Positions 2,800 to 64,000 of a stretch of DNA of 64,000 bases are shown here, in pieces; within the stretch, counting starts at the first letter, position 1, and each line of letters opens with the position of its first letter. The DNA comes from Carposina sasakii (lineage: Eukaryota > Arthropoda > Insecta > Lepidoptera > Carposinidae). The stretch spans positions 11,966,001 through 12,030,000 of the forward strand of contig CP053154.1 of NCBI GenBank assembly GCA_014607495.2, given 5' to 3'. Under the pieces are notes generated by a model. It saw only the letters and a program-made list of their open reading frames with translations. It did not search any database and was not told where the DNA came from. A program made the position numbers and the translations under genes.

Positions 2800-3920
2800 A
2801 TGAAGCTGACTCTAGTCCTGGTAGCTGCTTTGCTGTGTGTTATGAAGGCTGATTCTACAGCATTACGTCAATATGGAATCCAGTATCAGTGGACCAATGA
2901 TGTTGAAAACCATGGTGAGTAACAACCCTTTTTGGTGTGTGATAATAATCGTTGCCTTTAGGAAAGGAAACGTTGCACGTTGATCAAAAGAAATTTTGAA
3001 CTATATTTGTACGTACATATACAAGAGTGTATGAGATCAAGTGCCCTGGAGACAATGAGGCATAATTTTTCGTATTCATATTCTTCTATGCTGCTCTGGG
3101 AGTAAAAAAACCTATAATACTACAGCTGCTTCTCTCCTCGGGCATACTGTACAAGTCAGTAGAGGGACAAGAGGGTCTTGGTGATTTGTAGACGATAGGC
3201 TGACCACCTGTCACTACTAACCGAACTTGTACATCTCAACTATACCCTTAAAATTGGTCAGAAGTGGCACCATGTGGTTCTATCGGCCCTTGGTGCTCTG
3301 CCTACCCCGTAAGGGATAAAGGCGTGATTATATGTATGTATAGGTATGTATATTCCCTGTGCTAATGCAGGGCTTCAATAGAATACATCAGCTGCACTGA
3401 ATCTCCTTCCGAAAGTGTCGTAGGATTACTGCAGTTCTGGCTACCCCATTTTCGAACCCACAGCCGTGTGTATCTATGTATGTATTTTGATAACGCAGAG
3501 ATGGATGGAATAGTAACGGTCTGCCGTGTGAGTATGGGAATCGTTACATATTTTCCTGAATTTTACCATCGCAATAAGAAAATTTCTTATTCTTACCCAT
3601 GCTTTATTGTACCTAACGTTTTTACAAATAAAGTTTATGACAAGAAAGATATACAAAGTTACTTAATGAGATTCCATACCTACATATTTTAGTATATTTG
3701 GCGAACCAACTGCTTATCTGTTTCGTATTTTTAAGTAATTCTTATCATTGTTTCAGATTACAAGAATGCCCGGTCAATGAGATTGGAAGCAGATCAGATG
3801 TCTCCACTCATTGTGATGGCGACTTTCCGGTCCTGTGACAATGGTTCCTGCGCCTTCTGGTGTGCCTTGTTTGGACTGAAGGGGTCCTGTGTCAGTGTAT
3901 CCACATGCCAGTGCTATTAA
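2800..3920 (+). CDS. Defensin-like CS-alpha-beta peptide gene (two exons)
   Basis: This gene encodes a predicted secreted peptide of 92 residues with a CS-alpha-beta (defensin) cysteine pattern. Exon 1 is 2800-2914 and exon 2 is 3757-3920, joined by a GTGAGT...TTTCAG intron in phase 1 (G|AT, an Asp). Residues 1-19 form a signal peptide (MKLTLVLVAALLCVMKADS). An R-S-M-R site near residues 45-48 could release a mature peptide. The C-terminal core has six cysteines spaced C-x4-C-x3-C-x8-C-x5-C-x-C, with a GSC gamma-core and a CQCY end. By family knowledge, such peptides act extracellularly in immunity, usually on bacterial or fungal membranes; activity here is inferred. The core is hydrophobic and weakly charged, unlike a classic cationic defensin. 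The intron holds a SINE copy. A TATA-like TATAATAG at 2757 would give only a very short leader, so the promoter is uncertain. Confidence 0.82.
3079..3347 (-). repeat. SINE-like repeat (TTATCCCTTACGGGG family), long copy
   Basis: Read on -, the block contains TTTATCCCTTACGGGGTAGG, then a GGTGCCACTTCTGACCA stretch, then CCTCTACTGACTTGTACAGT, and ends near a CAGAGCAGCATAGAAG motif. Other copies in the window are at 21900-22020, 41571-41925 (interrupted), 45591-45862, 46888-47008 and 55078-55200. This copy lies in the single intron of the defensin-like gene at 2800-3920. Confidence 0.75.
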
Positions 3921-4250: not shown

Positions 4251-4639
4251 TAATGAATATTATTTTGATGCTTTTACTTATTGTACTTATACACACACAG
4301 TTTAATTTGAGAGATATTCCATGAATTTTGTTGTCAAAAGTTATCTAAAACTAGGATATAACTTTAAGCGCTCTTTATATGCAGTAGTTCATGTACAGAT
4401 TTTAATGTTGCAAAATTGTCACTTAGCTCGTGCCTCGGAAAGCACGTAAAACCGTTGGTCCTCTATCCAGGTCCACTTATTCTGTTATCTCTCTCCGGTC
4501 GTGTCGGCTTTCCGTCACATCGGAAAATAAATAACATCACATTTCACTATGAGATAAAACAATAAATACACAATCAAATTTTCATATTTTTTTACATGAG
4601 AGTAACAGATTGTAGGTAAAAGTAGTTGGAATAGAGAGT

Positions 4640-6596: not shown

Positions 6597-6695
6597 AATG
6601 GATTTTTTTTCCAGGATAATTTCTACATTTTGTTTTATGTGCAGTCCACGCGGACGGAGTCGCAGGCGTCCACCAGTGAATAGTAAAGCCTATGC
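6597..6695 (+). repeat. Helitron-like repeat fragment
   Basis: It contains GGATAATTTCTACATTTTG and GTCCACGCGGACGGAGTCGC, both found again in the longer copy at 26590-26865. The 135-codon open frame that begins here is created by this repeat and is not a gene. Confidence 0.55.
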
Positions 6696-18176: not shown

Positions 18177-20556
18177 ATGGTCGATTGGGATTTAGTAATT
18201 ATTGCCCTTTTGGCAGAGGAAGAGGAAGATGAAGAATATCTAAATAAAATAAGACGTCATAAAATGAGAAGAACAGTGTGGATAGAAGAAACGTGGCAGG
18301 AAAGATGTACCTTAGGCGAATATTATACATTGTGTAAGAATTTACCATTAAGAGGTGTTCACTTTTATGACTATTATAAGTTAAACTACGAAAAATTTGA
18401 AATTTTAGTTAATTTGTTACGCCCGCATATCCAAAAACACAATACGAATTATCGACCTAGCATTTCTGTTGAGGAACGACTTACCATATGTTTAAGGTTA
18501 GTAAAAAAACTCTTAATTTACATAGTTATTATTTATTAAGTCATAGTGTTTTTTTTATTTAATCAAATATATATTTTTATTATAAAATAATTAGGAAAAA
18601 ATAGACTGATTTTGAGTTGTAATGTTAAATGTACGGTTTAGTTACTTGTTAAAAATTTGAAGTGTACAGATTAGGAGTAATTGTTGATGGCGTGAATGTA
18701 TCAGTTATTTCCTTAGAAGTATATTTTTTTGTTTGATCGGAAATTGTAACAAATTCCACTTGTGGACTGGGCTTAAATTTGAATGTGTTAGGAGTAATTG
18801 TTGATGGCGTGAATGTATCAGTTATTTCCTTAGAAGTATATTTTTTGTTTGATCGGAAATTGTAACAAATTCCACTTGTGGACTGGGCTTAAATTTGGAT
18901 GTGCTAGGAGTGATTGCTGATGGCGTGTATGTATACTGAGGAACCGATATATTAGAGGTCTGTTTTGATGGTATGTACGGAGAAAAGTTGCTGTCTTCAC
19001 TATCGTCTACGTCATTAGACGTTTGGATTAATTGATTTGAAGCACGTTCTCTAACATGTTCATCGTAATATTCGATTTCAGCATCGTTTATAATTTTGAA
19101 TACATCCCTTTTTATACGTGCTTGCATCCTCTCGGGGAGATTTTTCACAGTTGATGCCATTGTTTTAAAAAAGCTATCTACAGGATGCTCATGTTCCTTA
19201 CTCTGGATGTATTTTTCAAGAATCTCCGAAGCCCGTCCTGGCTTAGGCTGCGAATAATTGGACATTTGGGATGATGGCCTAGGAGATTCATTTTGTCGTG
19301 TCTCATCAGTGTCTGATGTTAACTGTAAATTTGAAGATTGTGTGTCTTCTGATGATGAGTCTAAATTTGACGTTTGTTGTCTGTGCTGAAGATGTGGTTT
19401 CAAAAACTCCATTAACTGTTCATATTTTATTGGGCGACGCCTACCGCCAGCAGAACCACTTTTGAATTTTCTTGTATTTATAGCCCTTCTAAAATTATCT
19501 CGAAGTAACTTCCAGCATCTTTGACAATCTGAAACTAATAAAAAATATCTATAAATTATGTATATAATAAATATATGAACATTTATTTAACGTAAGCTTT
19601 TTTTCTTCCAGATTTTTGACTGTCGGCAGTAGTTTTAAATCATTGGCTTTTAATTTCCGCATGGGTTTCAGTACAATCCGTAAAATAGTTCATGAAACGT
19701 GCGCTGTGATTTGGAAAGTATTGCAGCCTTTAGTGATGCCAAAGCCAACTTCGGAATCCTGGTCACAAATCGAAGAAGGTTTCAAAAATATTTGGAACTT
19801 CCCTAATTGCATCGGTGCCATTGACGGAAAACATGTAACTATACGGGCACCACACAATAGCGGAAGCCTATATTTCAATTATAAAAAGACATTTAGTACC
19901 GTATTATTGGCAGTTGTAGATGCAAACTACAAATTCGTTGTGGTTGATGTCGGTGCATACGGGCGCAATAGCGATGGCGGTATATTCTCAAATTCTCAGT
20001 TAGGGAACAAAATTCATAATGGGACGCTCAATATACCCCCGAACAAGTGCTTACCAGGTACAAATCAAGAAATGCCACACGTATTTGTGGCCGATGAAGC
20101 ATTTCCTTTATGCAAAAATATAATGCGGCCTTATCCTGGAAATGATATTAGGGGTGATCGAGAGAAAAAATATATAATTATAGACTTAGCAGAGCTCGAC
20201 AAATGGTAGAATGTACATTTGGGATAATGGTACAGAAATTTGAAATTTTTCAAAGACTGCAAAAAGTGCATCCTCATCACCTTGATATGATTATTTTGGC
20301 TTGTACTTGTTTGCATAATTTTCTCATCGATAAAGACCAGATTCCCTCAGCATCACAACGAATACTTTCGCATAACACTAGCCCCCTGCCACTCCCGCAA
20401 GATATTATTTTGGAACAGTTTCAATCACTGGATGAAAACAACTTATCATCAAGTATAACCACAAGTATGGGGATTCGAGATAAATTCAAAGAATATTTTA
20501 ATTCAGAAGCTGGATCAGTTAACTGGCAAGATAATATAATTAATCGATGTAATTAA
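18177..20556 (+). pseudogene. Harbinger transposase (DDE nuclease), two exons, one frameshift
   Basis: The gene encodes the nuclease that cuts and pastes the surrounding transposon. Exon 1 is 18177-18496 and exon 2 is 19612-20556, joined by a GTTAGT...CTTCCAG intron that restores an Arg codon (AG|A). I chose ATG 18177 (MVDWDLV), since the frame upstream has no ATG. The N-terminus is acidic (EEEEDEE), then a region with TICLR before the junction. Exon 2 shows CIGAIDGKHV (first Asp), FVADEAFPL (second Asp) and MVECTFG (the Glu), the catalytic triad order of Harbinger nucleases. One base is missing near 20166-20171 in an A-run: the frame stops at 20209, while the last segment from about 20172 is in the next frame. 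Total length, about 421 codons if counted through, is normal. The large intron contains the last exon of the antisense MADF gene. Confidence 0.9.
18671..18903. repeat. Tandem duplication, 117 + 116 bp
   Basis: Two adjacent copies (18671-18787 and 18788-18903) begin TTAGGAGTAATTGTTGATGG and differ by few bases, with a degenerate third start at 18904. The T-run has seven T in the first copy and six in the second. On - the second copy is the 3' end of the MADF gene, so the one-base difference decides where that protein stops. Confidence 0.85.
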
Positions 20557-22147: not shown

Positions 22148-22153
22148 TTTAAT
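22148..22153 (-). terminator. Candidate poly(A) signal ATTAAA for X-tox
   Basis: ATTAAA on -, about 42 bp beyond the TAA stop at 22197-22195. No AATAAA was seen nearer. The call rests on motif and position only. Confidence 0.35.
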
Positions 22154-22194: not shown

Positions 22195-22322
22195 TTAGTA
22201 GCAGTAGCAGGAGAGTCCCACGCAGTACCCGCCCATGTGGTTAAGTCTGCGACAGTATCTATTGCACTCATTGTTGTAACAGAGACCCAACTTTGCTGCT
22301 TCCAGGGGATTCATTGGTTTAT
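22195..22322 (-). CDS. X-tox: X-tox exon 9: terminal CS-alpha-beta module
   Basis: Acceptor CTTGTAG|AT. Encodes module 7 with CYNNEC, NRYC, a GGYC gamma-core and a CYCY end, then TAA. The 128-nt exon closes the frame. Ending right after the last cysteine pair is what a free-standing defensin does. Confidence 0.93.
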
Positions 22323-25300
22323 CTACAAGAAAAAATATTGAATTAGCATTTTACATATCAAAACTGTTAATTTTCAGCATTGTTTCACGTTTTAGAACTC
22401 TCTGAGGTTAAGTCTTTAGGATCGGTGCAATCCGTGCAATATTATTTACTAGTGGACGCCCGCGACTTCGTGGACTGCAGAAAAGACAAAATGTCGAAAT
22501 TATCCGGGATAAAAATATTTTCCCGGGATAAAAAGTAGCCTATAAGTTAATCCAGGGTGTCAGCTAATTCCATACCACAACATTTCATTAAAATCGCTCC
22601 AGCCGTTTTAAGTGAAAGAGTAACAAACATCCATCCATTCATAACTTTCGCGTTTATAATATTAGTAGGAGGAAGTAGGACTTATTTCTTTATTCAATTA
22701 CAAAATCTTAAAACTAGATACAACTGTGATTGGAAATACAACAACAGTAACCGAAGCTATCGTTATTATAACAGCGTGTTTAGACAATGTAACATCGTTT
22801 CGCATTGACGTTCGTTGTCGTAACAACGTCTTCCAATAGTGGTTTGACATCATCGCGTTATTTGACGAACGCGAAAGTGTAGGCTTTACAATGAAGCAAA
22901 CGTTCCCATGACAAACCTCTACCGATGCCTTCGAGATCAATTACTTTGTCTAAGGCCCCAATTAGTCAAAATTATTTTAAATGTACTTACCACTTGGTTT
23001 TCCATCATCTACTTCGTAAAGGTTTTTATTGATGTTCTCGGAAATGCTGTTGTCATTCATCACCGGTATAATGCGGACTTCCTCTGCAATAAATAAGTAA
23101 AAACTTTGAGTAACTTTAAAGATATAAATATAAAAACATATCTAATACTTTAATAGGTATATTATAATGATAATGGAAAAAGTAATTTTCAGTAGATAAA
23201 ACCGTAGAAACTAATTACCTAGTTGGTGCAATTCGTGCAATGGGCGGTCCCTAGTTCAGAAAAATGAAAATAACATAGGTACAAGTTTTTAATAGAAAAA
23301 TTCGTTAATATCTAAGTTTTTACACGAAGGAAAGTAATTACTGAAAAATGCAATTGTTGTGCTACATGAAACTATTTACTAACATATTGTAAAAAAAATT
23401 ACCGCATGCCATATAAGAAGATAATGAAATGCAGATCATGATGATCAGATGCTGAAAATATGTTTTTATATATGGAATGTATGAATAAATGAAACTCTAC
23501 AATAAACAGTCCCAATGATAGCATGCGTAACCCTCAGTAGACCAACCAACTACCTTCCAATCCTTGGAAGATATTGCATGTGCATTTGCCGTCCACACAT
23601 TTTCCACCAGGAAAATCTAGATTTCTGCATAATCTATCACACTCTGTCACGATACAAGAGTGCGGTTTCTTTGAATTTACTTCTACTGGAAATGCTGAAA
23701 TTTCTGAACATCGATATATAGATTTAGTAGATACTTGTTACATAATTCGGCGGGTAATTGATCAAGAAAGTTCATCAGCTCAGTAGCCCAGATAAAAATT
23801 CTTAATCACGTGTATTAATCAATACATTTCTCTGTATATTCTTGTTTTGTTCGTCTCTTATCTACCTAACCCTCATCTATGTTACATGACATTATGTTAT
23901 ATAACTCACCGGCTCTGAAGTTATCGCAATCACACTTGCCGTTGACACAGGCGCCTCCAGGAAAGCCCAGCCGGCGACACAGCTGGTCGCAGGCGTTGAG
24001 GTTGCAATCTCCAATAGCCTTGACTGCGGCTGCTTCATCATTGGAGAAAGATACTGCAGCTAAAAATTGAATCGAACATCATTTTTGATGCTTTGAAATA
24101 TACAAAAAAGTCGCAGGGTGTATGGAATAAATAATGAAATATCTAGTAAATACTGAAATGCTGACTTCAGAACATGATTCTGAAGTAAAAACCATTGTAT
24201 AATATCACCTGACATTTTCATTCCTTTTTCTTCACCAACCTATAATATGTGTCCGAGTAGGATCAGATAAGGCCTATTATGATTCACAGTTTGTAACAAT
24301 ACATTATACAAAATGGCATAATAACTTATCAACTATCTTAGAAAGTAATTTAGTTAATATTATATTACTTACCCTCTCTGAAGTTATCGCAGTCACACTT
24401 GCCGTTGACACAGGCGCCTCCAGGGAAGCCCAGCCGGCGACACAGCTGTTCGCAGGCGTTGAGGTTACAATCTCCAGTAGTCTTGGCTGCGACTGCTTCA
24501 ACATTGAAGGAAGATGCTGCAGATGAAAATTGAATCGAACATAATTTTTGATACTTTGATTGAAGAAGCCATAGGATCCTTACAAAGACTAATTAATTTG
24601 AAATTAGAAAAAAGATACAGGGTGTATGGATAAATCTAGTAAAGATTGAAATGCTGACTTCAGAACATAAACTCTGAAGTGAAAACTATTGAATAATCTA
24701 ACCTGACATTTTAATTCGTTTTTCTTCACCAACCTATAATATGTGTCCGAGTAGGATCAGATAAGGCCTATTATGATTCACAGTTTGTAACAATACATTA
24801 TACAAAATGGCATAATAACTTATCAACTATCTTAGTAATTTAGTTAATATTATATTACTTACCCTCTCTGAAGTTATCGCAGTCACACTTGCCGTTGACA
24901 CAGGCGCCTCCAGGGAAGCCCACCCGGCGACACAGCTGCTCGCAGGCGTTGAGGTTGCAATCTCCAATAGCCTTGACTGCGGCTGCTTCATCATTGGAGA
25001 AAGATACTGCAGCTAAAAATTGAATCGAACATCATTTTTGATGCTTTGAAATATACAAAAAAGTCGCAGGGTGTATGGAATAAATAATGAAATATCTAGT
25101 AAATACTGAAATGCTGACTTCAGAACATGATTCTGAAGTAAAAACCATTGTATAATATCACCTGACATTTTCATTCGTTTTTCTTTACCAACCTATAATA
25201 TGTGTCCGAGTAGGATCAGATAAGGCCTATTATGATTCACAGTTTGTAACAATACATTATACAAAATGGCATAATAACTTATCAACTCTCTTAGAAAGTA

Positions 25301-28300
25301 ATTTAGTTAATATTATATTACTTACCCTCTCTGAAGTTATCGCAGTCACACTTGCCGTTGACACAGGCACCTCCAGGGAAGCCCAGCCGGCGACACAGCT
25401 GCTCGCAGGCGTTGAGGTTACAATCTCCAGTAGTCTTGGCTGCGACTGCTTCAACATTGAAGGAAGATGCTGCAGATGAAAATTGAATCGAACATAATTT
25501 TTGATACTTTGATTGAAGAAGCCATAGAGTGATCCTTACAAAGACTAATTAATTTGAAATTAGAAAAAAGATACAGGGTGTATGGAGAAATCTAGTAAAT
25601 ACTGAAATGCAGACTTCAGAACATAAACTCTCAAGTGAAAACTATTGAATAATCTAACCTGACATATTATTACGTTTTTCATCACCAACCTATAATATGT
25701 GTCCGAGTATTAAATGCGACGAAATGTACAATGATTACACAGATTGATTAGGATTGCCACGCACAAACTTGACACTGTAGCTGCATTAGATAATAATCAT
25801 GGAATATATAAAAATATAAAAATGCCAAAATGTGTTGTAAAAATTGCAGGATAGTAAATAAATAAAGGTGGTGTTATCTACCATCGGCGGGGTGACTCGT
25901 AGGTATGCAAAAGAGCATGTCTGTTATTACTATCTTAACTGTTAGAGTATACATCCTACTATTCTAATTTTGAAGTCAAAGAACACACATAAGTAAAGTT
26001 TGAGAGATTATCTATATCTATCTATACATATAATAAAAATGTAACGGATCGCTGTCTGTACATGGAAGATATAAAAAAAGGCTTTCCATGATCTACGTAT
26101 ACAGTATAACAATGGATTCAGGATGCTGCTGCGGCTGCCTCGATTTTGTAGTGCCTCAGAGATTTTTGCGCATACCCGAACAGATGATTTCTTCGTAATC
26201 ATAAGGAAGAGAGCGGCTTCTCTGCTAGCAAGGATGCGTAGCAGTAGCAATGGCATCCTGAAAACATTGTCAGGCAAATGTGATTCGGCCATGCTTAATC
26301 ACATAAGGGACCAGTATCGGTGCATAATATTTTTATGATGGAATGGGTGCAACATTTGATTTATGATGTTTTATTTTATTTTTATTATTGATTTAATTTG
26401 TTTCATTTATTTAATTCCATTTGATTTAGTTTAATTTAAATTGATTTGTTTGAGTTACTTTTTAATATAATTTCATTAATTCAATTTAATTAATATCCGC
26501 AATTAGTTACTAACATAGATTAAGACTTTTACAAATATGGAAATCAATTTTCTGAAATAAAATTGATATTATTATTATTATAAGAAAAAATGTTATTGGA
26601 GACCTTTATCAACGCAATAGTACCCAAAAGAATGATTTTTGAAAATTTTGTCTGTTTGTTTGCCGATTTGTCTGTGCGTTTGTGCACGCTAATCTCAGAA
26701 ACGGCTAATCCGATTTCGATGCAGTTTTCAGGAATATATTGTGACAGGTCCCACTTAACATATAGGCTACTTTTTATCTCGGGAAAATGTTTTTATCCCG
26801 GATAATTTCGACATTTTGTTTTTACTGTAGTCCACGCGGACGGAGTCGCGGGCGTACACTAGTCTTGGAATATAAAGCTTTAAACATTGGTAATGTCGGA
26901 TCTTATATACTTACTGGACAGCTGTGCATAGTTGTTACACTTGCATCGATCTCCGATACACATGCCACCGCTGTATCCTTGCGCTCTGCATGACCGGCCA
27001 CATGCTAGGATGTCGCATCTCTGCAATTGACCATCCGAGTCAACTGTACTTATATCATCTGCAAGGAAACAAGGAGATTTGCTATTTACGGGTGAATAAC
27101 CAGGAATTGAGAAGAACGATTAAGAAATGCCAATAGTTTCTCAATGTACAGAATACTAAGTTTTAATGGCTGAGAATCTGATTTTGATACAGAGAGTAGG
27201 TACCTCTGAGAGTAAGAACTATGTATATCACAGGTTATTTACTCTTGAGAGCTCTCTTGAGCTACCGAAAGTTGCAAGCATGGACTTTTAAAATTTGATA
27301 TTAATAATTTTATAATATATAATATCTTGACTAAGATAAATTTATAAAAATATTTCTCCATTAATATAATCCGTTAGGATATGGTTGATCGTTTCATCTT
27401 TAAACATTGTGCTGAGGGATTCAGCTTTCGGGATGAAAAATAACGTTGCCAATATGTAATTTAGAAAAGAGATGGTAAAATTCGTCATCCGAGTAATTGA
27501 CCCGGTGGTTCAGTGGTTAGAGCAACTAGCACGGTATGCAGTGGTCGTGGGTTCGATTCCCACTCGGGTGATGAATTTTTTCCATTTCTTTATTAATAAT
27601 TTTGGTATTGGTTGTTTAAGTTCGGAAACGTTTTAGTAAAAATAATGATGTTACCTAAGTAATATGTGGCTGTCGGATCTTATTTGTGATTATTGCAGTT
27701 CGGTCTACCTTATCGACCTCATCTACCTTATCTACCTATATTTTGGTAACACAGTCTTGTGTAGGTACTAAACAATGTTTTTTTTCCTAACCCTCTCGCT
27801 GCGATGCATTGTGTTGATCAATTAGCGTATTGCACATTTCTTCATATCCACTAATTTTTTCGATATTGTCATAGACGAATAAGAAGACTTATTCCTCTAT
27901 GATATTGTATATGTAGATTGATAAAGAAGCCTGAGTGCTTACATTTTATTAATTTAATAGTAAAGCGATTTTTATTAAGACGAGTAGCCCCGTCAATATC
28001 AGAAATTGCGTATAAGAGTTACTCATATACCATTTGTGTCATAGGTTATTTAGATATTAGCATACTATCATGGATTAAATTTGCTACTACAACAGCTCCA
28101 GGAAGTATACGAATATACATTACTCCGATGTTTTTCAGACGCTTGCTACATAGCATTTGTAAGCAAACGGATCGATTTTTTCATTTAAAAATTGCCGAGG
28201 TCTATCCCGATTTTTATGGCCAAGGTCATTTAAGACTACAGTCTTCTTAATGGTGATGATATGTTACAGATATTTTTTAGCTTCACGAATAAATAGGTCA

Positions 28301-28661
28301 AGTACGTGTTTAAGCGTTATCTATTATATAAATACATACGCTATCTATTTCCTACATTATACATATTTATTGAGACTTTGATTCATAAATAACTATTAAT
28401 TTAGTGATTTAATTTGTACACACTAAATAGGAAGTCTGGGAGTGAAGGAAAAATAAATAATTGCATCTTATCCAGATACGGAATAGCAATTAAATTTATT
28501 TTTGTAATGAATTAAGCTATCTGACTATCTGCAATATAGAAAATTATAAACGAATAATTAACAAAAATATGCAACTTACCAACATCATAAATGTTAACGT
28601 TGACCACACTAGCGTTCACCAAACACAATGCTGACACAACAAACAGAGACCTGACCAACAT
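22195..28661 (-). CDS. X-tox: X-tox-type protein: signal peptide plus seven CS-alpha-beta (defensin-like) modules, nine exons
   Basis: The gene encodes a secreted immune-related 'defensin rosary' of the lepidopteran X-tox family. Exons on -: 28661-28580, 27058-26915, 25469-25326, 25006-24863, 24516-24373, 24053-23910, 23694-23554, 23083-22991 and 22322-22195. All junctions are GT-AG and all in phase 1; the joined frame is 1164 nt, 387 residues. Exon 1 gives a signal peptide (MLVRSLFVVSALCLVNA). Exons 2-7 and 9 each carry one six-cysteine module, C-x4-C-x3-C-x9-C-x4-C-x-C, with a GGxC gamma-core. Exon 8 is a cysteine-free acidic linker. Modules 3-6 are near-identical alternating pairs from a recent 953-bp duplication. 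Family knowledge: X-tox proteins are made by haemocytes or fat body after infection, and the one tested lacked antimicrobial activity; the role is unsettled. Repeats fill introns 1, 2 and 8. Other X-tox proteins differ mainly in module number. Confidence 0.93.
22444..22680 (-). repeat. Helitron-like repeat in X-tox intron 8
   Basis: Read on -, it ends in a GC-rich stretch and ACTAGT, with a TTATCCCGGGAAAATATTTT block also seen, in altered form, at 26780-26810. It is noncoding and lies between exons 8 and 9. Confidence 0.55.
22745..22890 (-). repeat. Repeat copy matching 11572-11705 in reverse
   Basis: It shares ATCGTTTCGCATTGACGTTC with the reverse complement of the earlier copy. It is noncoding and intronic. 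Confidence 0.45.
22991..23083 (-). CDS. X-tox: X-tox exon 8: cysteine-free linker
   Basis: A 93-nt phase-1/phase-1 exon (acceptor TTATTGCAG, donor GTAAGT). It encodes about 31 residues rich in Asn, Glu and Asp (NDNSISENINKNLYEVDDGK) and no cysteine. It separates module 6 from module 7 and could be skipped without changing the frame. Confidence 0.85.
23554..23694 (-). CDS. X-tox: X-tox exon 7: CS-alpha-beta module 6
   Basis: Acceptor AAATTTCAG|CA, donor G|GTAGTT, 141 nt. The module reads CIVTEC, DRLC, PGGKC, VDGKC, TC. Spacing matches the other modules, but sequence has diverged from exons 3-6, so it is an older copy. Confidence 0.9.
23910..24053 (-). CDS. X-tox: X-tox exon 6: CS-alpha-beta module 5 (type B)
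   Basis: Acceptor TTAGCTGCAG|TA, donor G|GTGAGT, 144 nt. It starts VSFSNDEAAAVKAIGDC and has the NLNAC, QLC, PGGAC, NGKC, DC cysteine frame. It is nearly identical to exon 4, exactly 953 bp away. Confidence 0.92.
24373..24516 (-). CDS. X-tox: X-tox exon 5: CS-alpha-beta module 4 (type A)
   Basis: Acceptor CATCTGCAG|CA, donor G|GTAAGT, 144 nt. It starts with the SSFNVEAVAAKTTGDC stretch and is nearly identical to exon 3, exactly 953 bp away. Confidence 0.92.
24863..25006 (-). CDS. X-tox: X-tox exon 4: CS-alpha-beta module 3 (type B)
   Basis: Acceptor TTAGCTGCAG|TA, donor G|GTAAGT, 144 nt. It is a type B module; compared with exon 6 it has a Leu-to-Val change after CRR and Glu for Asp before QLC. 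Confidence 0.92.
25326..25469 (-). CDS. X-tox: X-tox exon 3: CS-alpha-beta module 2 (type A)
   Basis: Acceptor CATCTGCAG|CA, donor G|GTAAGT, 144 nt. It is the upstream type A module; differences from exon 5 appear to be synonymous. Confidence 0.92.
26100..26560 (+). pseudogene. LINE C-terminal fragment and AT-rich 3' UTR in X-tox intron 2
   Basis: The + frame at 26123-26338 encodes RLPRFCSASEIFAHTRTDDF and RKRAASLLARMRSSSNGIL, a C-terminal motif I recognise from lepidopteran Jockey-type LINE reverse transcriptases. AT-rich noncoding DNA follows. It is short, 5'-truncated and non-functional. Confidence 0.6.
26590..26865 (+). repeat. Helitron-like repeat in X-tox intron 2
   Basis: It contains CAGAAACGGCTAATCCGATT, a TTTTATCTCGGGAAAATG block and an end with hairpin CGCGGACGGAGTCGCG eight bases before CTAGT. 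A hairpin followed by CTRRT is the Helitron 3' signature. It is short, noncoding and non-autonomous. Confidence 0.6.
26915..27058 (-). CDS. X-tox: X-tox exon 2: CS-alpha-beta module 1
   Basis: Acceptor TTTCCTTGCAG|AT, donor A|GTAAGT, 144 nt. The module reads CDILAC, GRSC, a GGMC gamma-core, IGDRC, KC, preceded by a short Asp-rich spacer (DDISTVDSDG). It is the module most like the free peptide encoded at 35979-36761 (CRAQGYSGG versus CRQKGYAGG). Confidence 0.93.
27500..27569 (+). repeat. tRNA-like sequence, probably a SINE head, in X-tox intron 1
   Basis: The stretch has an A-box-like TGGTTCAGTGGTTAGAGCA and B box GGGTTCGATTCCC with a perfect 5-bp T stem (27547-27551 with 27559-27563). The acceptor arms pair for about six bases. 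The anticodon arm does not fold into a normal 5-bp stem with 7-base loop, so a working tRNA is unlikely. Flanking GTCATCCGAG and CTCGGGTGATGA extend the end pairing. Confidence 0.55.
28580..28661 (-). CDS. X-tox: X-tox exon 1: signal peptide
   Basis: ATG at 28661 follows a CAAAA context and gives 27 codons plus one base before GTAAGT. The hydrophobic MLVRSLFVVSALCLVNA is a typical signal sequence. The phase-1 break rebuilds Asp (G|AT) as in the two defensin-like genes. Confidence 0.9.
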
Positions 28662-28724: not shown

Positions 28725-28732
28725 TTTATATA
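28725..28732 (-). promoter_or_regulatory. TATA box of X-tox
   Basis: TATATAAA on -, 64-71 bp upstream of the start codon. A TTCATT initiator-like motif lies about 30 bp downstream (near 28697), giving a leader of roughly 35 bases. Confidence 0.6.
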
Positions 28733-28880: not shown

Positions 28881-28890
28881 GGGACTTCAC
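28881..28890 (+). promoter_or_regulatory. NF-kappaB-like site, one mismatch, upstream of X-tox
   Basis: GGGACTTCAC fits GGGRNNYYCC except at position nine. It lies about 220 bp upstream of the X-tox start. Induction through Toll/IMD is plausible for this family but the site is weak. Confidence 0.25.
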
Positions 28891-35704: not shown

Positions 35705-35714
35705 GGGAGTTCCC
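35705..35714 (+). promoter_or_regulatory. Consensus NF-kappaB site
   Basis: GGGAGTTCCC fits GGGRNNYYCC fully. It lies about 210 bp upstream of the TATA box of the defensin-like gene at 35979, with a GATA motif (TGATAAG) 60 bp further upstream. NF-kappaB plus GATA sites are the usual control of insect antimicrobial peptide genes; function here is inferred. Confidence 0.5.
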
Positions 35715-35978: not shown

Positions 35979-36761
35979 ATGAAAACATTTGCACTGTTCG
36001 GTGCGCTTTTAACCATTGCCTTCCTAGCGTTATTTGTTCGAGATGTCGGTATGTATTTTATTTAACGTTTTTGGTATTTGACCGATTTATCCACAATGTA
36101 CCTAACTTGAATTTAACGTTTCACTAGAATACATCAGCTGCATCTCCTTTCTTGCATGAGTCGACTAAGGACCTCGGGCATTCTCTCAGGCGATGAGCTA
36201 GCAACTTGTCACCGACCATTTACATCTGTCCCCGCAATGCTAAACGTGGCTGTGGGATCTACGTTAATATACTCTAGGGCTACATAGAGGACGCATACAT
36301 ACGTAGGCATCCAGCGTTTCGACTATCGAAAGGATATGAGAAATAATTGCAAATGCGAATTAATTATTTATTTTTAAAAAAAGATACATAATATCACATG
36401 TAAGAGATCATTATTCTGTGAATGACGTTACCACATTCATAAATCATACTAATAATGCGAAATCACTGAATCTTACTTAGAAAAGGCTATAAGAGCTTTC
36501 ATACAATTTAAACTCAAATATTGAGTAGTTTGGTCGCAGTGAAAATTGGTCACACGTATAATGAGTGCAATTTGGTCACAACTGAATTGATAATTGACAC
36601 TTTTTCCCGCAGATTCATTACCATCATACCAGAGAACGACGATTCGAGGACCCACTTTCCCTAACAGCTGCGTGTTCTATGAGTGCATCGCTAGTTGCAG
36701 ACAGAAGGGGTACGCCGGCGGCGGTTATTGCACGATTAGGGGATGCCAGTGCCTGCGGTAG
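35979..36761 (+). CDS. Defensin-like CS-alpha-beta peptide gene (two exons)
   Basis: This gene encodes a predicted secreted 72-residue precursor with a defensin-fold core. Exon 1 is 35979-36048; exon 2 is 36613-36761; the intron is G|GTATGT...TTCCCGCAG in phase 1, rebuilding Asp. Residues 1-22 form a signal peptide (MKTFALFGALLTIAFLALFV). A short basic stretch (YQRTTIRGPTFPNS) precedes the core. Six cysteines are spaced C-x4-C-x3-C-x10-C-x4-C-x-C, with a GYC gamma-core and C-terminal CLR. The spacing is that of the X-tox modules except for one extra residue, and CRQKGYAGG resembles X-tox module 1, so the two genes probably share ancestry. A core promoter and an NF-kappaB consensus site suggest infection-induced expression. 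By family knowledge the mature cationic peptide would be antimicrobial; this is not shown here. The intron holds a repeat copy (36124-36290). Confidence 0.87.
36124..36290 (-). repeat. Short interspersed repeat, family D, intronic copy
   Basis: It contains TTCTCTCAGGCGATGAGCTA and AGCAACTTGTC, the reverse complement of the layout at 836-1015. It lies in the intron of the defensin-like gene. Its left part, AGAATACATCAGCTGCA, is also present near 3380. Confidence 0.5.
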
Positions 36762-48744: not shown

Positions 48745-49110
48745 TGGTGATTTTTGGTCGTTAACGTTCCTGAAAACTACGTAATCTCCTCATCATCACG
48801 ATCATTTTTCTCCTTGGAAGCATACCTGGGAAGTGTCTGGTTTTCAAAATATTAGGGTCCAAAGTTGAGTAAATAGACTGCGTTTTTCTGCATGAATGTA
48901 CATAGATGCGCGTAGCAAGATTTTTCACGAGAAATAATTAATATCTTTCTATGAAAAAACTAGCATAAACACTATACACTATAAATTTTGCCAGATCAAG
49001 TAAAAAAAAAAAAAAAAAAATCCAAGCACATTTTTGGCATAAACTTACTTTATTTGATGTATAGAGTACTTACCCTTCGTTAATGGAGGCCACAAAAAAC
49101 ACCCTGTATA
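48745..49110 (+). repeat. Interspersed repeat ending ACACCCTGTATA, copy 1
   Basis: It contains CATCATCACGATCATTTTTC, GCATACCTGGGAAGTGTCTG and GTTGAGTAAATAGACTGCGT, all present in order at 58152-58437. This copy has extra DNA including a poly(A) tract (about 49002-49020). Confidence 0.7.
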
Positions 49111-50394
49111 GTTTCCATCGACCAATTGCAGTACTGTCCCCTAACTCCTAACCGTTAAGGAGTTCTGTAGCTTGACCATCAGCACAGCAGCATCAGATGT
49201 TGATTCAAGTAACACGTTAGCCCTGCATACTACTAAATAGTTTCCATCGACCAATTGCAGTACTGTCTCCCAACTCCTAACCGTTAAGGAGTTCTGTAGC
49301 TTCATCATCAGCACAGCAGCATCAGATATTGATTCAAGTAACACGTTAGCCCTGCATACTACTAAATAATTTCCATCGACCAATTGCAGTACTGTCTCCC
49401 AACTCCTAACCGTTAAGGAGTTCTGTAGCTTCATCATCAGCACAGCAGCATCAGATATTGATTCAAGTAACACGTCAGCCCTACACACTACTAAATAGTT
49501 TTCATCGACCAATTGCTGTACTGTCTCCGAACTCCTAACCGTTAAGGAGTTCTGTAGCTTCATCATCAGCACAGAAGCATCAGATGTTGATTCAAGTAAC
49601 ACGTTAGCCCTACATACTACTAAATAGTTTCCATTGACCAATTGCAGTACTGTATCCCAACTCCTAACCGCTAAGGAGTTCTGTAGCTTAACCATCATCA
49701 CAGCAGCATCAGATGTTGATTCAAGTATACCTCACAAGCAACAAGTTAGCCCTACATACCACTATATAGTTTCCATCGACCAATTGCAGTACTGTCTCCC
49801 AACTCCTAACCGTTAAGGAGTTCTGTAGCTTAACCATCATCACAGCAGCATCAGATGTTGATTCAAGTATACCTCACAAGCAACAAGTTAGCCCTACATA
49901 CCACTATACAGTTTCCATCGACCAATTGCAGTACTGTCTCCCAACTCCTAACCGTTAAGGAGTTCTGTAGCTTCATCATCAGCACAGCAGCATCAGATAT
50001 TGATTCAAGTAACACGTTAGCCCTGCATACTACTAAATAGTTTCCATCGACCAATTGCAGTACTGTCTCCCAACTCCTAACCGTTAAGGAGTTCTGTAGC
50101 TTCATCATCAGCACAGCAGCATCAGATGTTGATTGAAGTAACACGTCAGCCCTACACACTACTAAATAGTTTTCATCGACCCATTGCTGTACTGTCTCCC
50201 AACTCCTAATCGTCAAGGAGTTCTATAGCTTCATCATCAGCACAGAAGCATCAGATGTTGATTCAAGTAACACGTTAGCCCTACATACAACTTAATAGTT
50301 TCCATTGACCAATTGCAGTACTGTATCCCAACTCCTAACCGTTAAGGAGTTCTGTAGCTTCATCATCAGCACAGCAGCATTAGATGTTGACACC
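49111..50394 (-). repeat. 129-bp tandem repeat array, ten units
   Basis: Units start at 49111, 49240, 49369, 49498, 49627, 49769, 49911, 50040, 50169 and 50298. Most are 129 bp and two are 142 bp with an extra TACCTCACAAGC segment. Each holds CTCCTAACCGTTAAGGAGTT, a small inverted repeat. Because 129 is a multiple of three, - frames stay open as a 43-residue repeat (LQNSLTVRSWETVLQLVDGN). I find no start context, splice site or known domain, and the 142-bp units break the frame, so I treat it as a minisatellite. Confidence 0.9.
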
Positions 50395-53907: not shown

Positions 53908-54630
53908 TGCAGTACCTAATGTCCCCTAACTCCTAACCGTTAAGAAGTTCTGTAGCTTGACCATCAGCACAGCAACATCAGATGTTGATTCAAGTATACC
54001 TCACAAGCAACACGTTAGCCCTACATACTACTATATAGTTTCCATCGACCAATTGCAGTACTGGTTCCCAACTCCTAACCGTTAAGGAGTTCTGTAGCTT
54101 CATCATCAGCACAGCAGCATCAGATGTTGATTCTAGTAACACGTTAGCCCTACATACTACTAAATAGTTTCCATCGACCAATTGCCGTACTGTCTCCCAA
54201 CTCCTAACCGTTAAGGAGTTCTGTAGCTTCATTATCAGCACAGCAGCATCAGATGTTGATTCGAGTTACATGTTAGCCCTACATACTACTAAATAGTTTC
54301 CATCGACCAATTGCAGTACTGTGGAGTTCTGTAGCTTCATCATCAGCACAGCAGCATCAGATGTAGATTCAAGTAACACGTCAGCCCTACATACTACTAA
54401 ATAGTTTCCATCGACCAATTTCCGTACTGTCTCCGAACTCCTAACCGTTAAGGAGTTCTGTAGCTTCATCATCAGCACAGCAGCATTAGATATTGATTCA
54501 AGTAACACGTTAGCCCTTCATACTACTAAATAGTTTCCATCGACCAATTGCACTACTGTACTGTCTCCCAATTCTTAACCGTTAAGGAGTTCTGTAGCTT
54601 CATCATCAGCACAGCAACATCAAATATTTA
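53908..54630 (-). repeat. 129-bp tandem repeat array, second copy, about six units
   Basis: Unit starts are seen at 54038, 54167, 54296, 54404 and 54533, plus a degenerate first unit at about 53908. One unit has lost 21 bp. The sequence is the same as in the array at 49111-50394 with a few percent differences. Confidence 0.88.
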
Positions 54631-62096: not shown

Positions 62097-64000
62097 CTAT
62101 TTATCTACCGTAAGCAAGTTCTCGGTTTCGTCATAGGACAGCTCCTGCAGACATTTGTAAACTTGTTTCTTACAATCAAAGTAATTGAGGTTATATATGT
62201 AATAAACTTTATTTATTCTATTGTATAACAAGGGTCCCATATAGGCAAAAAATCTATTTGTAAAAGCAAACGGTGTTGAGGAAACAGTACAAACAATATC
62301 TTTTCGTCTTTTGTTAGTCACGTCATGATCATAAGCAAGCACTTTGTGCTGTTTTAAAACAGTGTGCATTATAAAAAGCTGGCGGACGGTTAGCACCTTG
62401 CAAGAATTATAAAGTAGGGAAGTTGGAAATAGGAAGGGACGAAACGTAGCCACCTTAAGTATTGCGCGTTGAGCTCGCTCGAGAGATAGTATGATGGTTT
62501 TATGTGTTCCACCCCATGAGCTGATACAGTACTGAATTATGGATTGACCAAGGACCTGATAAACTTGTTTAATTAATTTTGAATCAGCAATAAGCCGTAG
62601 TTTTTTGAATACATATAGTAACTTCCGTACTCTACTAACTACTTCTTGTATATGTGCTCGAAAAGAGAGGGTTTCATCGAGTGTAACCCCAAGATACTTG
62701 ATACTTGTAGTTTTTTGGATATGTGGACAATTACAGGAGAGATCAGAAAGACATAAATGGGCATAGATATGAGGATATAAAACAATATGATGGGTTTGGC
62801 GCATGGTAAAATGGATGTACTTAGTTTTATCAGCGTTTAGTGTTAGTAAATTATATTGAAGCCAGTTATTTACAGTATTAAACCTTGTTGTGCATAATTA
62901 AAAAGCTCCGTATTGGTGTTAGCTGAGAAAATTAAAGCAGTATCATCAGCATAGGAAATTATCTTGCCTTGTTCCAGATTTAGGTTACACAAGTCGTTAA
63001 TGTAAATTAAAAAACAGGGTAGGACCCAGGATACTTCCCTGAGGGACTCCAAAGCTGGTGTTTTGCTGGTCATCACTGATAAAGTTTTCTATTTTGACAC
63101 ATTGGTATCTGTTGTCTAAGTAGTCTGCTAGTAATTTATGTTGAGTGCCTCTTATACCTAAGGAGTCTAACTTTTTTAAAAGGATGGGTACAGATACCGT
63201 GTCAAAAGCTTTTGCTAAGTCCAGGAAAACAGCCAGAGTCTGTTTTCCCTTACCCAATTCTTGTGAAACATAGTTGGTCAGACAATGGACCGCATCATCC
63301 GTCGAAAGCCTAGTTCTAAAACCAAATTGGTTAGGTGACAGAAGATGGTTTTTCTCAAGATAGTTGACTAGTCTGATGTTAATGATCTTTTCTAAAATTT
63401 TTGAAATTGATGGGAGTAAGGATATTGGTCTATAGTTATTCACTCTGTCTTTACTTCCTGCTTTGTGAATTGGTATCACTACTGCCTTTTTAAGACATTT
63501 TGGGAATATTCCTTTAGATAAGCATAGTCGGAAAATATGTGTTAGGGGAGGAACCAGAATATGTTTAAATTGCTTAAGTATTTTATTACTTATATTATCC
63601 CAGCCCACGGCGCAGTCATCTTTTAGACCTGAGATGATGCGTGTGACTTCATTTTCATCTGTGTCCAATAAAACAAAAGATTTGGTAGTCAACACAGAAG
63701 TATAAGTTTGTAGCAAGGGAATATTAGATCGTGTGCCGGAATTTTCCGAAATCTGTTCAGCGAGATTCTTTCCTATATTTACAAAGAACTTATTGACCTC
63801 ATTAGCCGCTCGAAGTGGCGTAGAACAGGACGTTAGTAAATTCGAACATGATTTGTGCTCTTTAGCTGTATATGTGACATTTTTAATAAATTTCCAAACT
63901 TGCTTACTGTTGCTACCAGCCCTTTGTAAAATGCTTTTCTCATACGTGATTTTAATTTTCTTTAGGAGATTATTGCAAAAATTTCGGTACCTTTTATAAG
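62097..64000 (-). pseudogene. Non-LTR retrotransposon (LINE) ORF2, reverse transcriptase, partial, two frameshifts
   Basis: The - strand encodes the RT of a LINE from the window edge (64000) to a stop at 62097; the endonuclease part lies beyond the window. From the edge comes the linker between endonuclease and RT (NSKQVWKFIKNV), then RT blocks WDNISNKILK, PIHKAGSKDRVNNYRPISLL, NQFGFR, FLDLAKAFDTV and PQGSILGP. At about 63009-63014 an A-run carries one extra base and shifts the frame; YINDL and the catalytic YADDT follow (63076-62870). A second shift at about 62875 leads into the thumb and C-terminal part (KYLGVTLDETLSFRAHI...). The clade is Jockey/CR1-like by motif, not settled. A 3' UTR (62096-61791) and poly(A) follow. 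Few lesions suggest a fairly young copy. Confidence 0.9.

What the first reader, a model, noticed from the sequence alone, without database searches (positions are those of the whole stretch)
22195..28661. Seven-module X-tox (defensin rosary) gene, complete with signal exon and terminal module
All nine exons can be placed with GT-AG sites and phase-1 junctions, and the joined frame is intact (387 codons plus stop). Seven exons each encode one module with the fixed spacing C-x4-C-x3-C-x9-C-x4-C-x-C. X-tox genes are known only from Lepidoptera as far as I know, and differ by module number, so a seven-module form with a cysteine-free linker before the last module may be a new member. The small exons are easily missed by automated prediction.
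Basis: partly seen in the sequence, partly recalled or inferred. Interest (0 to 1): 0.88.

Follow-up and report, generated by a model that had tools for sequence, protein, structure and literature searches.

The report
Seven-module X-tox moth immune gene
This is an intact gene of a known moth and butterfly immune family, a secreted chain of seven defensin-like beads in which a two-bead block was recently copied; it is a good new example of a known family rather than something new in kind.

Summary
Nine minus-strand exons (22195-28661) with GT-AG sites and phase-1 junctions give 387 codons plus a stop. Seven of seven modules have the spacing C-x4-C-x3-C-x9-C-x4-C-x-C; 0 of 60 shuffled windows held one. 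The protein search listed 42 relatives at E<=1 with 4-12 modules each; 41 of 42 carry a lepidopteran name and three are named X-tox or Heli-5/7-tox. So X-tox is right, but the suggested novelty is weak: 5 of 42 also have seven modules, Heli-7-tox among them, and 3 of 42 (all S. exigua) have a longer cysteine-free stretch before the last module. All 128 of 128 combinations of internal-exon skipping stay in frame. Two two-exon defensin-like genes flank it, one gallerimycin-like, and genome searches show one X-tox locus. Likely product (inferred): a secreted haemocyte protein of defensin-fold beads, probably not microbicidal, its length set by module copying and splicing. Expression was not tested.

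The parts
28580..28661 (-). exon 1: start codon and signal-like N-terminus (27 codons + 1 base)
   Evidence: strongest hydrophobic stretch of the protein at residues 5-15; relatives P0005, P0019, P0020 begin alike
26915..27058 (-). exon 2: module 1
25326..25469 (-). exon 3: module 2, type A of the duplicated block
24863..25006 (-). exon 4: module 3, type B (possible alternative acceptor 6 bases upstream)
24373..24516 (-). exon 5: module 4, type A copy (same protein as exon 3 in the 47 codons compared, two silent changes)
23910..24053 (-). exon 6: module 5, type B copy (three amino-acid and two silent codon changes against exon 4)
23554..23694 (-). exon 7: module 6
22991..23083 (-). exon 8: cysteine-free linker
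   Evidence: 52 cysteine-free residues between modules 6 and 7
22195..22322 (-). exon 9: module 7 and stop codon
23889..25709 (.). tandem block, approximate ends: two-exon unit of about 953-956 bp in two copies, each made of two older one-exon units (spacings 463, 490, 463)
28726..28732 (-). TATA-like sequence starting 71 bases before the ATG (consensus match only)
22148..22153 (-). ATTAAA polyadenylation-signal-like sequence 42 bases after the stop (consensus match only)
35979..36048 (+). flanking gallerimycin-like gene, exon 1 (signal-like), phase-1 donor
36613..36761 (+). flanking gallerimycin-like gene, exon 2 (CS-alpha-beta part, spacing 4-3-10-4-1) and stop
   Evidence: the only match of this part in the genome at E<=10
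2800..2914 (+). flanking defensin-like gene A, exon 1 (signal-like), phase-1 donor
3757..3920 (+). flanking defensin-like gene A, exon 2 (one six-cysteine module, spacing 4-3-8-5-1) and stop
   Evidence: no protein relative found

Best explanation
An intact, single-locus lepidopteran X-tox gene. Shown from sequence: an exon with a signal-like N-terminus, seven exons each coding one defensin-like module, a linker exon, and a tandem copy of a two-module block. Inferred: after infection, haemocytes make and secrete a chain of seven separately folded, disulfide-locked CS-alpha-beta beads on flexible acidic linkers. By analogy with Spod-11-tox it is not turned into active defensins and does not kill microbes directly; it more likely acts as a multivalent binding or scaffold protein in haemolymph. 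Because every internal exon is symmetrical (phase 1-1), unequal crossing-over between the near-identical blocks and exon skipping can both change module number without breaking the frame.
For: Gene model, eight of eight GT-AG phase-1 introns, intact frame. 42 listed relatives at E<=1, best 2.3e-173 (Pieris brassicae, 40% identity, 98% of the query covered), three of them named X-tox, Heli-7-tox and Heli-5-tox. Pfam Toxin_2 in seven stretches, E 4.1e-19. Helix-strand-strand order in a predicted model of one module, mean pLDDT 70.4, resembling scorpion toxins and insect defensins (1r1g, rmsd 0.6 over 27 columns; drosomycin; ARD1), though 0 of 94 matches reached E<=0.001. In the relative Heli-7-tox, seven helix-strand-strand beads are predicted with low-confidence linkers between them. 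Repeat block: intron 3 v 5 316/319, exon 3 v 5 142/144, exon 4 v 6 138/144 identical. 128 of 128 exon-skipping combinations in frame without internal stop. Several relatives are listed as numbered isoforms. Infection-induced haemocyte expression, secretion and absence of antimicrobial activity of Spod-11-tox: PMC2728511, abstract, introduction and discussion read. Motif number said to vary between S. frugiperda individuals: PMC4436361, passages read.
Against: No RNA evidence was available: splicing, expression and induction are untested. Upstream of this gene only a loose kappa-B-like site was found (28881-28890); the strict pattern was absent in 1 kb, while the gallerimycin-like gene has one. 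The scaffold role is inference; the papers read show no positive function. Both structure models are modest: one module pTM 0.47, Heli-7-tox mean pLDDT 57.3, pTM 0.19. An assembly error in the block is not excluded.
Confidence: 0.87

Rival explanations
1. A reservoir: the chain is cut in haemolymph into seven free, active defensins.
For: Modules with intact cysteines and local net charges of 0 to +2. Spod-11-tox is reported to be processed into smaller products in haemocytes (PMC2728511 discussion).
Against: Of six dibasic pairs five lie inside modules and one in the spacer before module 6, so no regular cleavage site between modules is visible. The chain after residue 18 has net charge about -9, and 41 of 42 relatives are also negative by that count. 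Spod-11-tox immunoreactivity was separated from antimicrobial activity on purification.
Confidence: 0.07
2. A decaying locus, or a cluster of separate small defensin genes read as one.
For: Repeat insertions in the introns (inverted copies 22469-22550 and 26755-26836; a tRNA-like element in intron 1).
Against: One signal-like exon, intact frame, GT-AG at all eight introns, all 42 module cysteines present; relatives that align over up to 100% of the protein.
Confidence: 0.04
3. The two near-identical blocks are an assembly artefact, and the real gene has five modules.
For: The compared intron copies are 316/319 identical.
Against: The copies differ at 8 of 288 exon positions; a plain assembly duplication would be identical, unless two alleles were joined. 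Motif-number change within a species is reported for X-tox (passage).
Confidence: 0.07

Closest known systems
Heli-7-tox of Helicoverpa armigera (P0021)
   Same: Signal-like start, seven modules, all with spacing 4-3-9-4-1
   Different: 35% identity over 81% of the query; 26 residues before the last module against 52 here; 1 pair of modules at least 90% identical against 6 here
Spod-11-tox of Spodoptera frugiperda
   Same: X-tox rosary; published consensus C-x4-C-x3-C-x7-G-x-C-x3-K/R-C-x-C (PMC2728511 introduction)
   Different: 11 modules; protein studied experimentally. No listed hit bears its name and its sequence was not compared here
X-tox of Spodoptera exigua (P0020)
   Same: Similar N-terminus; 7 of 8 modules with the same spacing; 61 cysteine-free residues before the last module
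   Different: 8 modules, 36% identity
Gallerimycin of Trichoplusia ni (P0043), relative of the neighbouring gene
   Same: The gene at 35979-36761 is 61% identical to it with 100% of the query covered; that gene has the same phase-1 intron before its module as the X-tox exons
   Different: Single module, spacing 4-3-10-4-1 rather than 4-3-9-4-1

Membership tests
X-tox | One protein with several tandem CS-alpha-beta motifs of the C-x4-C-x3-C-x9-C-x4-C-x-C type | tested here: met
   7 of 7 modules; 264 of 291 modules counted in 42 relatives have the same spacing
X-tox | N-terminal signal peptide | tested here: inconclusive
   Strongest hydrophobic stretch at residues 5-15 (mean hydropathy 2.68 against at most 0.99 after residue 30) and a start like that of relatives; no signal-peptide program was run
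X-tox | Homology to named X-tox proteins | tested here: met
   P0020 E 3.1e-58, P0021 E 7.9e-58, P0028 E 2.7e-46
X-tox | Lepidopteran genome | tested here: inconclusive
41 of 42 relatives carry a lepidopteran name, one has no name (order of the species recalled); both gallerimycin hits of the neighbour gene are from moths
X-tox | Infection-induced expression in haemocytes and secretion | not testable with these tools
   No RNA or protein data
X-tox | No antimicrobial activity | not testable with these tools
   Reported for Spod-11-tox
Arthropod defensin (single peptide) | One mature CS-alpha-beta peptide per gene | tested here: not met
   Seven modules in one frame behind one signal-like exon
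Scorpion short toxin (Pfam Toxin_2) | Profile match | tested here: met
   E 4.1e-19, 69 bits against a cut-off of 25.1, seven stretches; I read this as shared fold and cysteine pattern, not venom function (inference)
Tenascin (database label of 18 of 42 relatives) | EGF repeats, fibronectin type III and fibrinogen domains (recalled) | tested here: not met
   Pfam at E<=10 listed five families, none fibronectin or fibrinogen; EGF_Tenascin only at E 7, 7.3 bits against a cut-off of 25

The most novel reading that the evidence does not exclude
The gene is caught in the act of growing: a two-module exon block that itself arose by one-exon copying has been copied again recently, so module number may still vary between individuals. 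Together with fully symmetrical exons this would let one locus, beside a gallerimycin-like neighbour, produce a population-wide and splice-level repertoire of bead lengths, with diversity placed in the linkers rather than the beads (exon 3 v 4: 7 amino-acid-changing and 0 silent codon differences in codons 2-13, then 1 and 2 in the rest).
Probability: 0.4. Interest if true: 0.45.

Novelty: new member of a known kind. Interest (0 to 1): 0.3.

Why it matters
X-tox proteins are described as a lepidopteran product of defensin evolution (PMC2728511), with no positive function shown in the papers read here. A clean gene with nested block copies, beside a gallerimycin-like gene of the same intron phase, is a convenient case for testing how such chains grow and whether module number varies within a species. 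It also shows that the common database name "tenascin-like" is misleading for this family.

Tried and rejected
Search for an eighth or decayed module with a module HMM: none. Test of whether terminal modules of this gene match terminal modules of relatives: not supported; modules 1 and 7 score on average no better against last modules than against first or internal ones, so I do not assign position groups. Neither flanking defensin is shown to be the parent of any module: its identity to modules 1-7 is 10-12 of 27 (gallerimycin-like) and 6-11 of 27 (gene A). Flanking gene A: no protein relative found; in the genome its two exons and a weak C3 hit, E 1.41. Two hits on contig C10 proved to be one defensin-like module and a second copy; the second has no signal exon that I could see by eye; other contig, left out. 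A C25 hit (E 0.043) held no CS-alpha-beta pattern in the 9 kb fetched. Copy number of the tRNA-like element in intron 1: not found. The paper on X-tox gene history (d'Alencon et al. 2013) is not held; I saw only its title in reference lists and a citing passage. That it reports defensin genes near X-tox genes and alternative splicing beyond what its title says is recalled. A workshop volume (PMC2999431) was listed for X-tox, but the text held is 1,439 characters with no hit.
Full report
Observation. The gene lies on the minus strand. Nine exons (see parts) join to 1,164 nucleotides, 387 codons plus stop; all eight introns are GT-AG and phase 1. An earlier try with the exon 8 donor one base off broke the frame. 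The seven modules all have spacing 4-3-9-4-1. The strict motif occurs seven times in the window and in 0 of 60 shuffled windows. A looser pattern found two further six-cysteine stretches, both on the plus strand; these belong to the neighbouring defensin-like genes.

Family. The protein search scored the 7,994 candidates that share most words with the query and listed 42 at E<=1. 41 of 42 carry a lepidopteran name; P0039 has none. Three bear X-tox type names (S. exigua X-tox, Heli-7-tox, Heli-5-tox) and 18 of 42 are called tenascin or tenascin-like. Local identity is 28-46%, over 32-100% of the query. By a motif count the 42 hold 4 to 12 modules, 291 in all, 264 with the strict spacing; some rows are isoforms of one gene and so not independent. 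Five of 42 have seven modules (P0010, P0013, P0018, P0021, P0031). The 52-residue cysteine-free stretch before the last module is exceeded in 3 of 42 (61, 61 and 65 residues, all S. exigua), and 7 of 42 reach 41 or more. Pfam gives Toxin_2 at 4.1e-19, Gamma-thionin at 1.8e-10 and Defensin at 2e-07, all above their cut-offs; these share the cysteine pattern. PDB sequence matches are weak, best 0.0062, the top rows scorpion potassium-channel toxins.

Fold. A model of the exon 3 module, with the six other X-tox modules and the two flanking-gene modules as alignment, has helix-strand-strand order and mean pLDDT 70.4; residues 21-40 average 84-87, the N-terminal linker is below 50. Foldseek against the PDB gave 94 matches at E<=10 and 0 at E<=0.001; the 50 rows shown are mostly defensins and scorpion toxins. 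For Heli-7-tox, with 24 sequences, seven helix-strand-strand beads are separated by stretches below pLDDT 50. This supports a beads-on-a-string protein with moderate confidence; the window's own full chain was not modelled.

Growth of the gene. Repeats at spacings 463, 490 and 463 bp and a longer match at offset 953-956 over 23889-24761 suggest two layers: first one exon was copied (types A and B; exon 3 v 4 133/144 identical), then the A-B block. Block copies: exon 3 v 5 142/144, exon 4 v 6 138/144, intron 3 v 5 316/319. Other intron pairs: intron 4 v 3 286/304 with 57 gap columns, intron 4 v the adjoining part of intron 2 293/322 with 48, intron 4 v 6 162/209 with 143; I take the last as lying past the end of the copy. 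Between A and B, changes crowd in the linker part: 7 amino-acid-changing and 0 silent codons in codons 2-13, against 1 and 2 in the rest; exon 5 v 6 gives 7 and 0, then 2 and 3, but shares the same history. Numbers are small, and gene conversion of the module part is an equally good account. All 128 of 128 subsets of the seven internal exons keep the frame. In print, motif number is said to vary between S. frugiperda individuals (PMC4436361, passages).

Surroundings. Two two-exon genes on the plus strand flank it, at 2800-3920 (92 aa) and 35979-36761 (72 aa), each with a phase-1 intron before its module. The second is gallerimycin-like: two hits, T. ni 61% and Samia ricini 53% identity, both with 100% of the query covered; it has a strict kappa-B-like site at 35705-35714 and a TATA-like site 62 bases before its ATG (consensus matches only). 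The first has no relative in the protein search. The flanking modules are no closer to the X-tox modules than X-tox modules 1 and 7 are to the internal ones, so common origin with this neighbour rests on shared intron phase and position, not on sequence. The genome (399,040,036 bases, 31 contigs) searched with a two-module query gave 10 matches at E<=10: the seven modules of this gene, two on C10 and one on C25. The terminal module gave five matches, all in this gene. One X-tox locus at this sensitivity.

Function. For Spod-11-tox, infection-induced haemocyte expression, secretion and lack of antimicrobial activity are published (PMC2728511; abstract, introduction and discussion read). X-tox up-regulation after microbial challenge is reported in Heliothis virescens haemocytes and, for two bacteria, in Pieris napi (PMC4553588 and PMC7838647, passages read). 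For this gene I infer the same. The protein has 43 cysteines, 42 in modules, and a calculated pI of 5.07. Of six dibasic pairs five fall inside modules and one in the spacer before module 6, so no regular processing site is visible. I consider a multivalent, non-killing role most likely; what it binds is unknown.

Verdict. The gene is a new member of a known kind. The nested block copy, the splicing symmetry and the gallerimycin-like neighbour are what a specialist would note. On checking, I changed the signal-peptide row to inconclusive, corrected the end of the block to 25709 and the HMM E-value to 4.5e-10, and moved the odds of the best explanation from 0.88 to 0.87 and of the assembly-artefact rival from 0.06 to 0.07.

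Noticed in passing
window 27499-27571 (+ strand, in X-tox intron 1): tRNA-like sequence, Rfam RF00005 at 37.1 bits, not called by ARAGORN with the bacterial code; by eye flanked by short inverted sequences, perhaps a tRNA-derived repeat. No second copy in the window; genome copy number not determined.
   Followed up: partly
window 22469-22550 and 26755-26836: Inverted 82-bp copies, 93% complementary, in introns 8 and 2 of the X-tox gene; a related piece at 6604-6677. Probably an interspersed repeat.
   Followed up: partly
window 49108-50390 and 54009-54627: Tandem arrays of a 129-bp unit (43 codons), the first with 9.7 copies and a 186-codon open frame on the minus strand; three Pfam matches without any stretch that passes on its own, probably spurious.
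   Followed up: partly
window 19616-20206 and 63000-63716: Transposon-type frames: DDE_Tnp_4 endonuclease (E 1.5e-18) and RVT_1 reverse transcriptase (E 3.8e-23).
   Followed up: no
L012 4967-5047 and 5437-5517 (contig C10): A defensin-like module with the exact X-tox spacing and a copy 470 bp downstream, 92% identical over 184 nt; by eye the first lies behind a signal-like exon near 4430.
   Followed up: partly
proteins P0001-P0042: 18 of 42 listed X-tox relatives are named tenascin or tenascin-like in public databases.
   Followed up: yes
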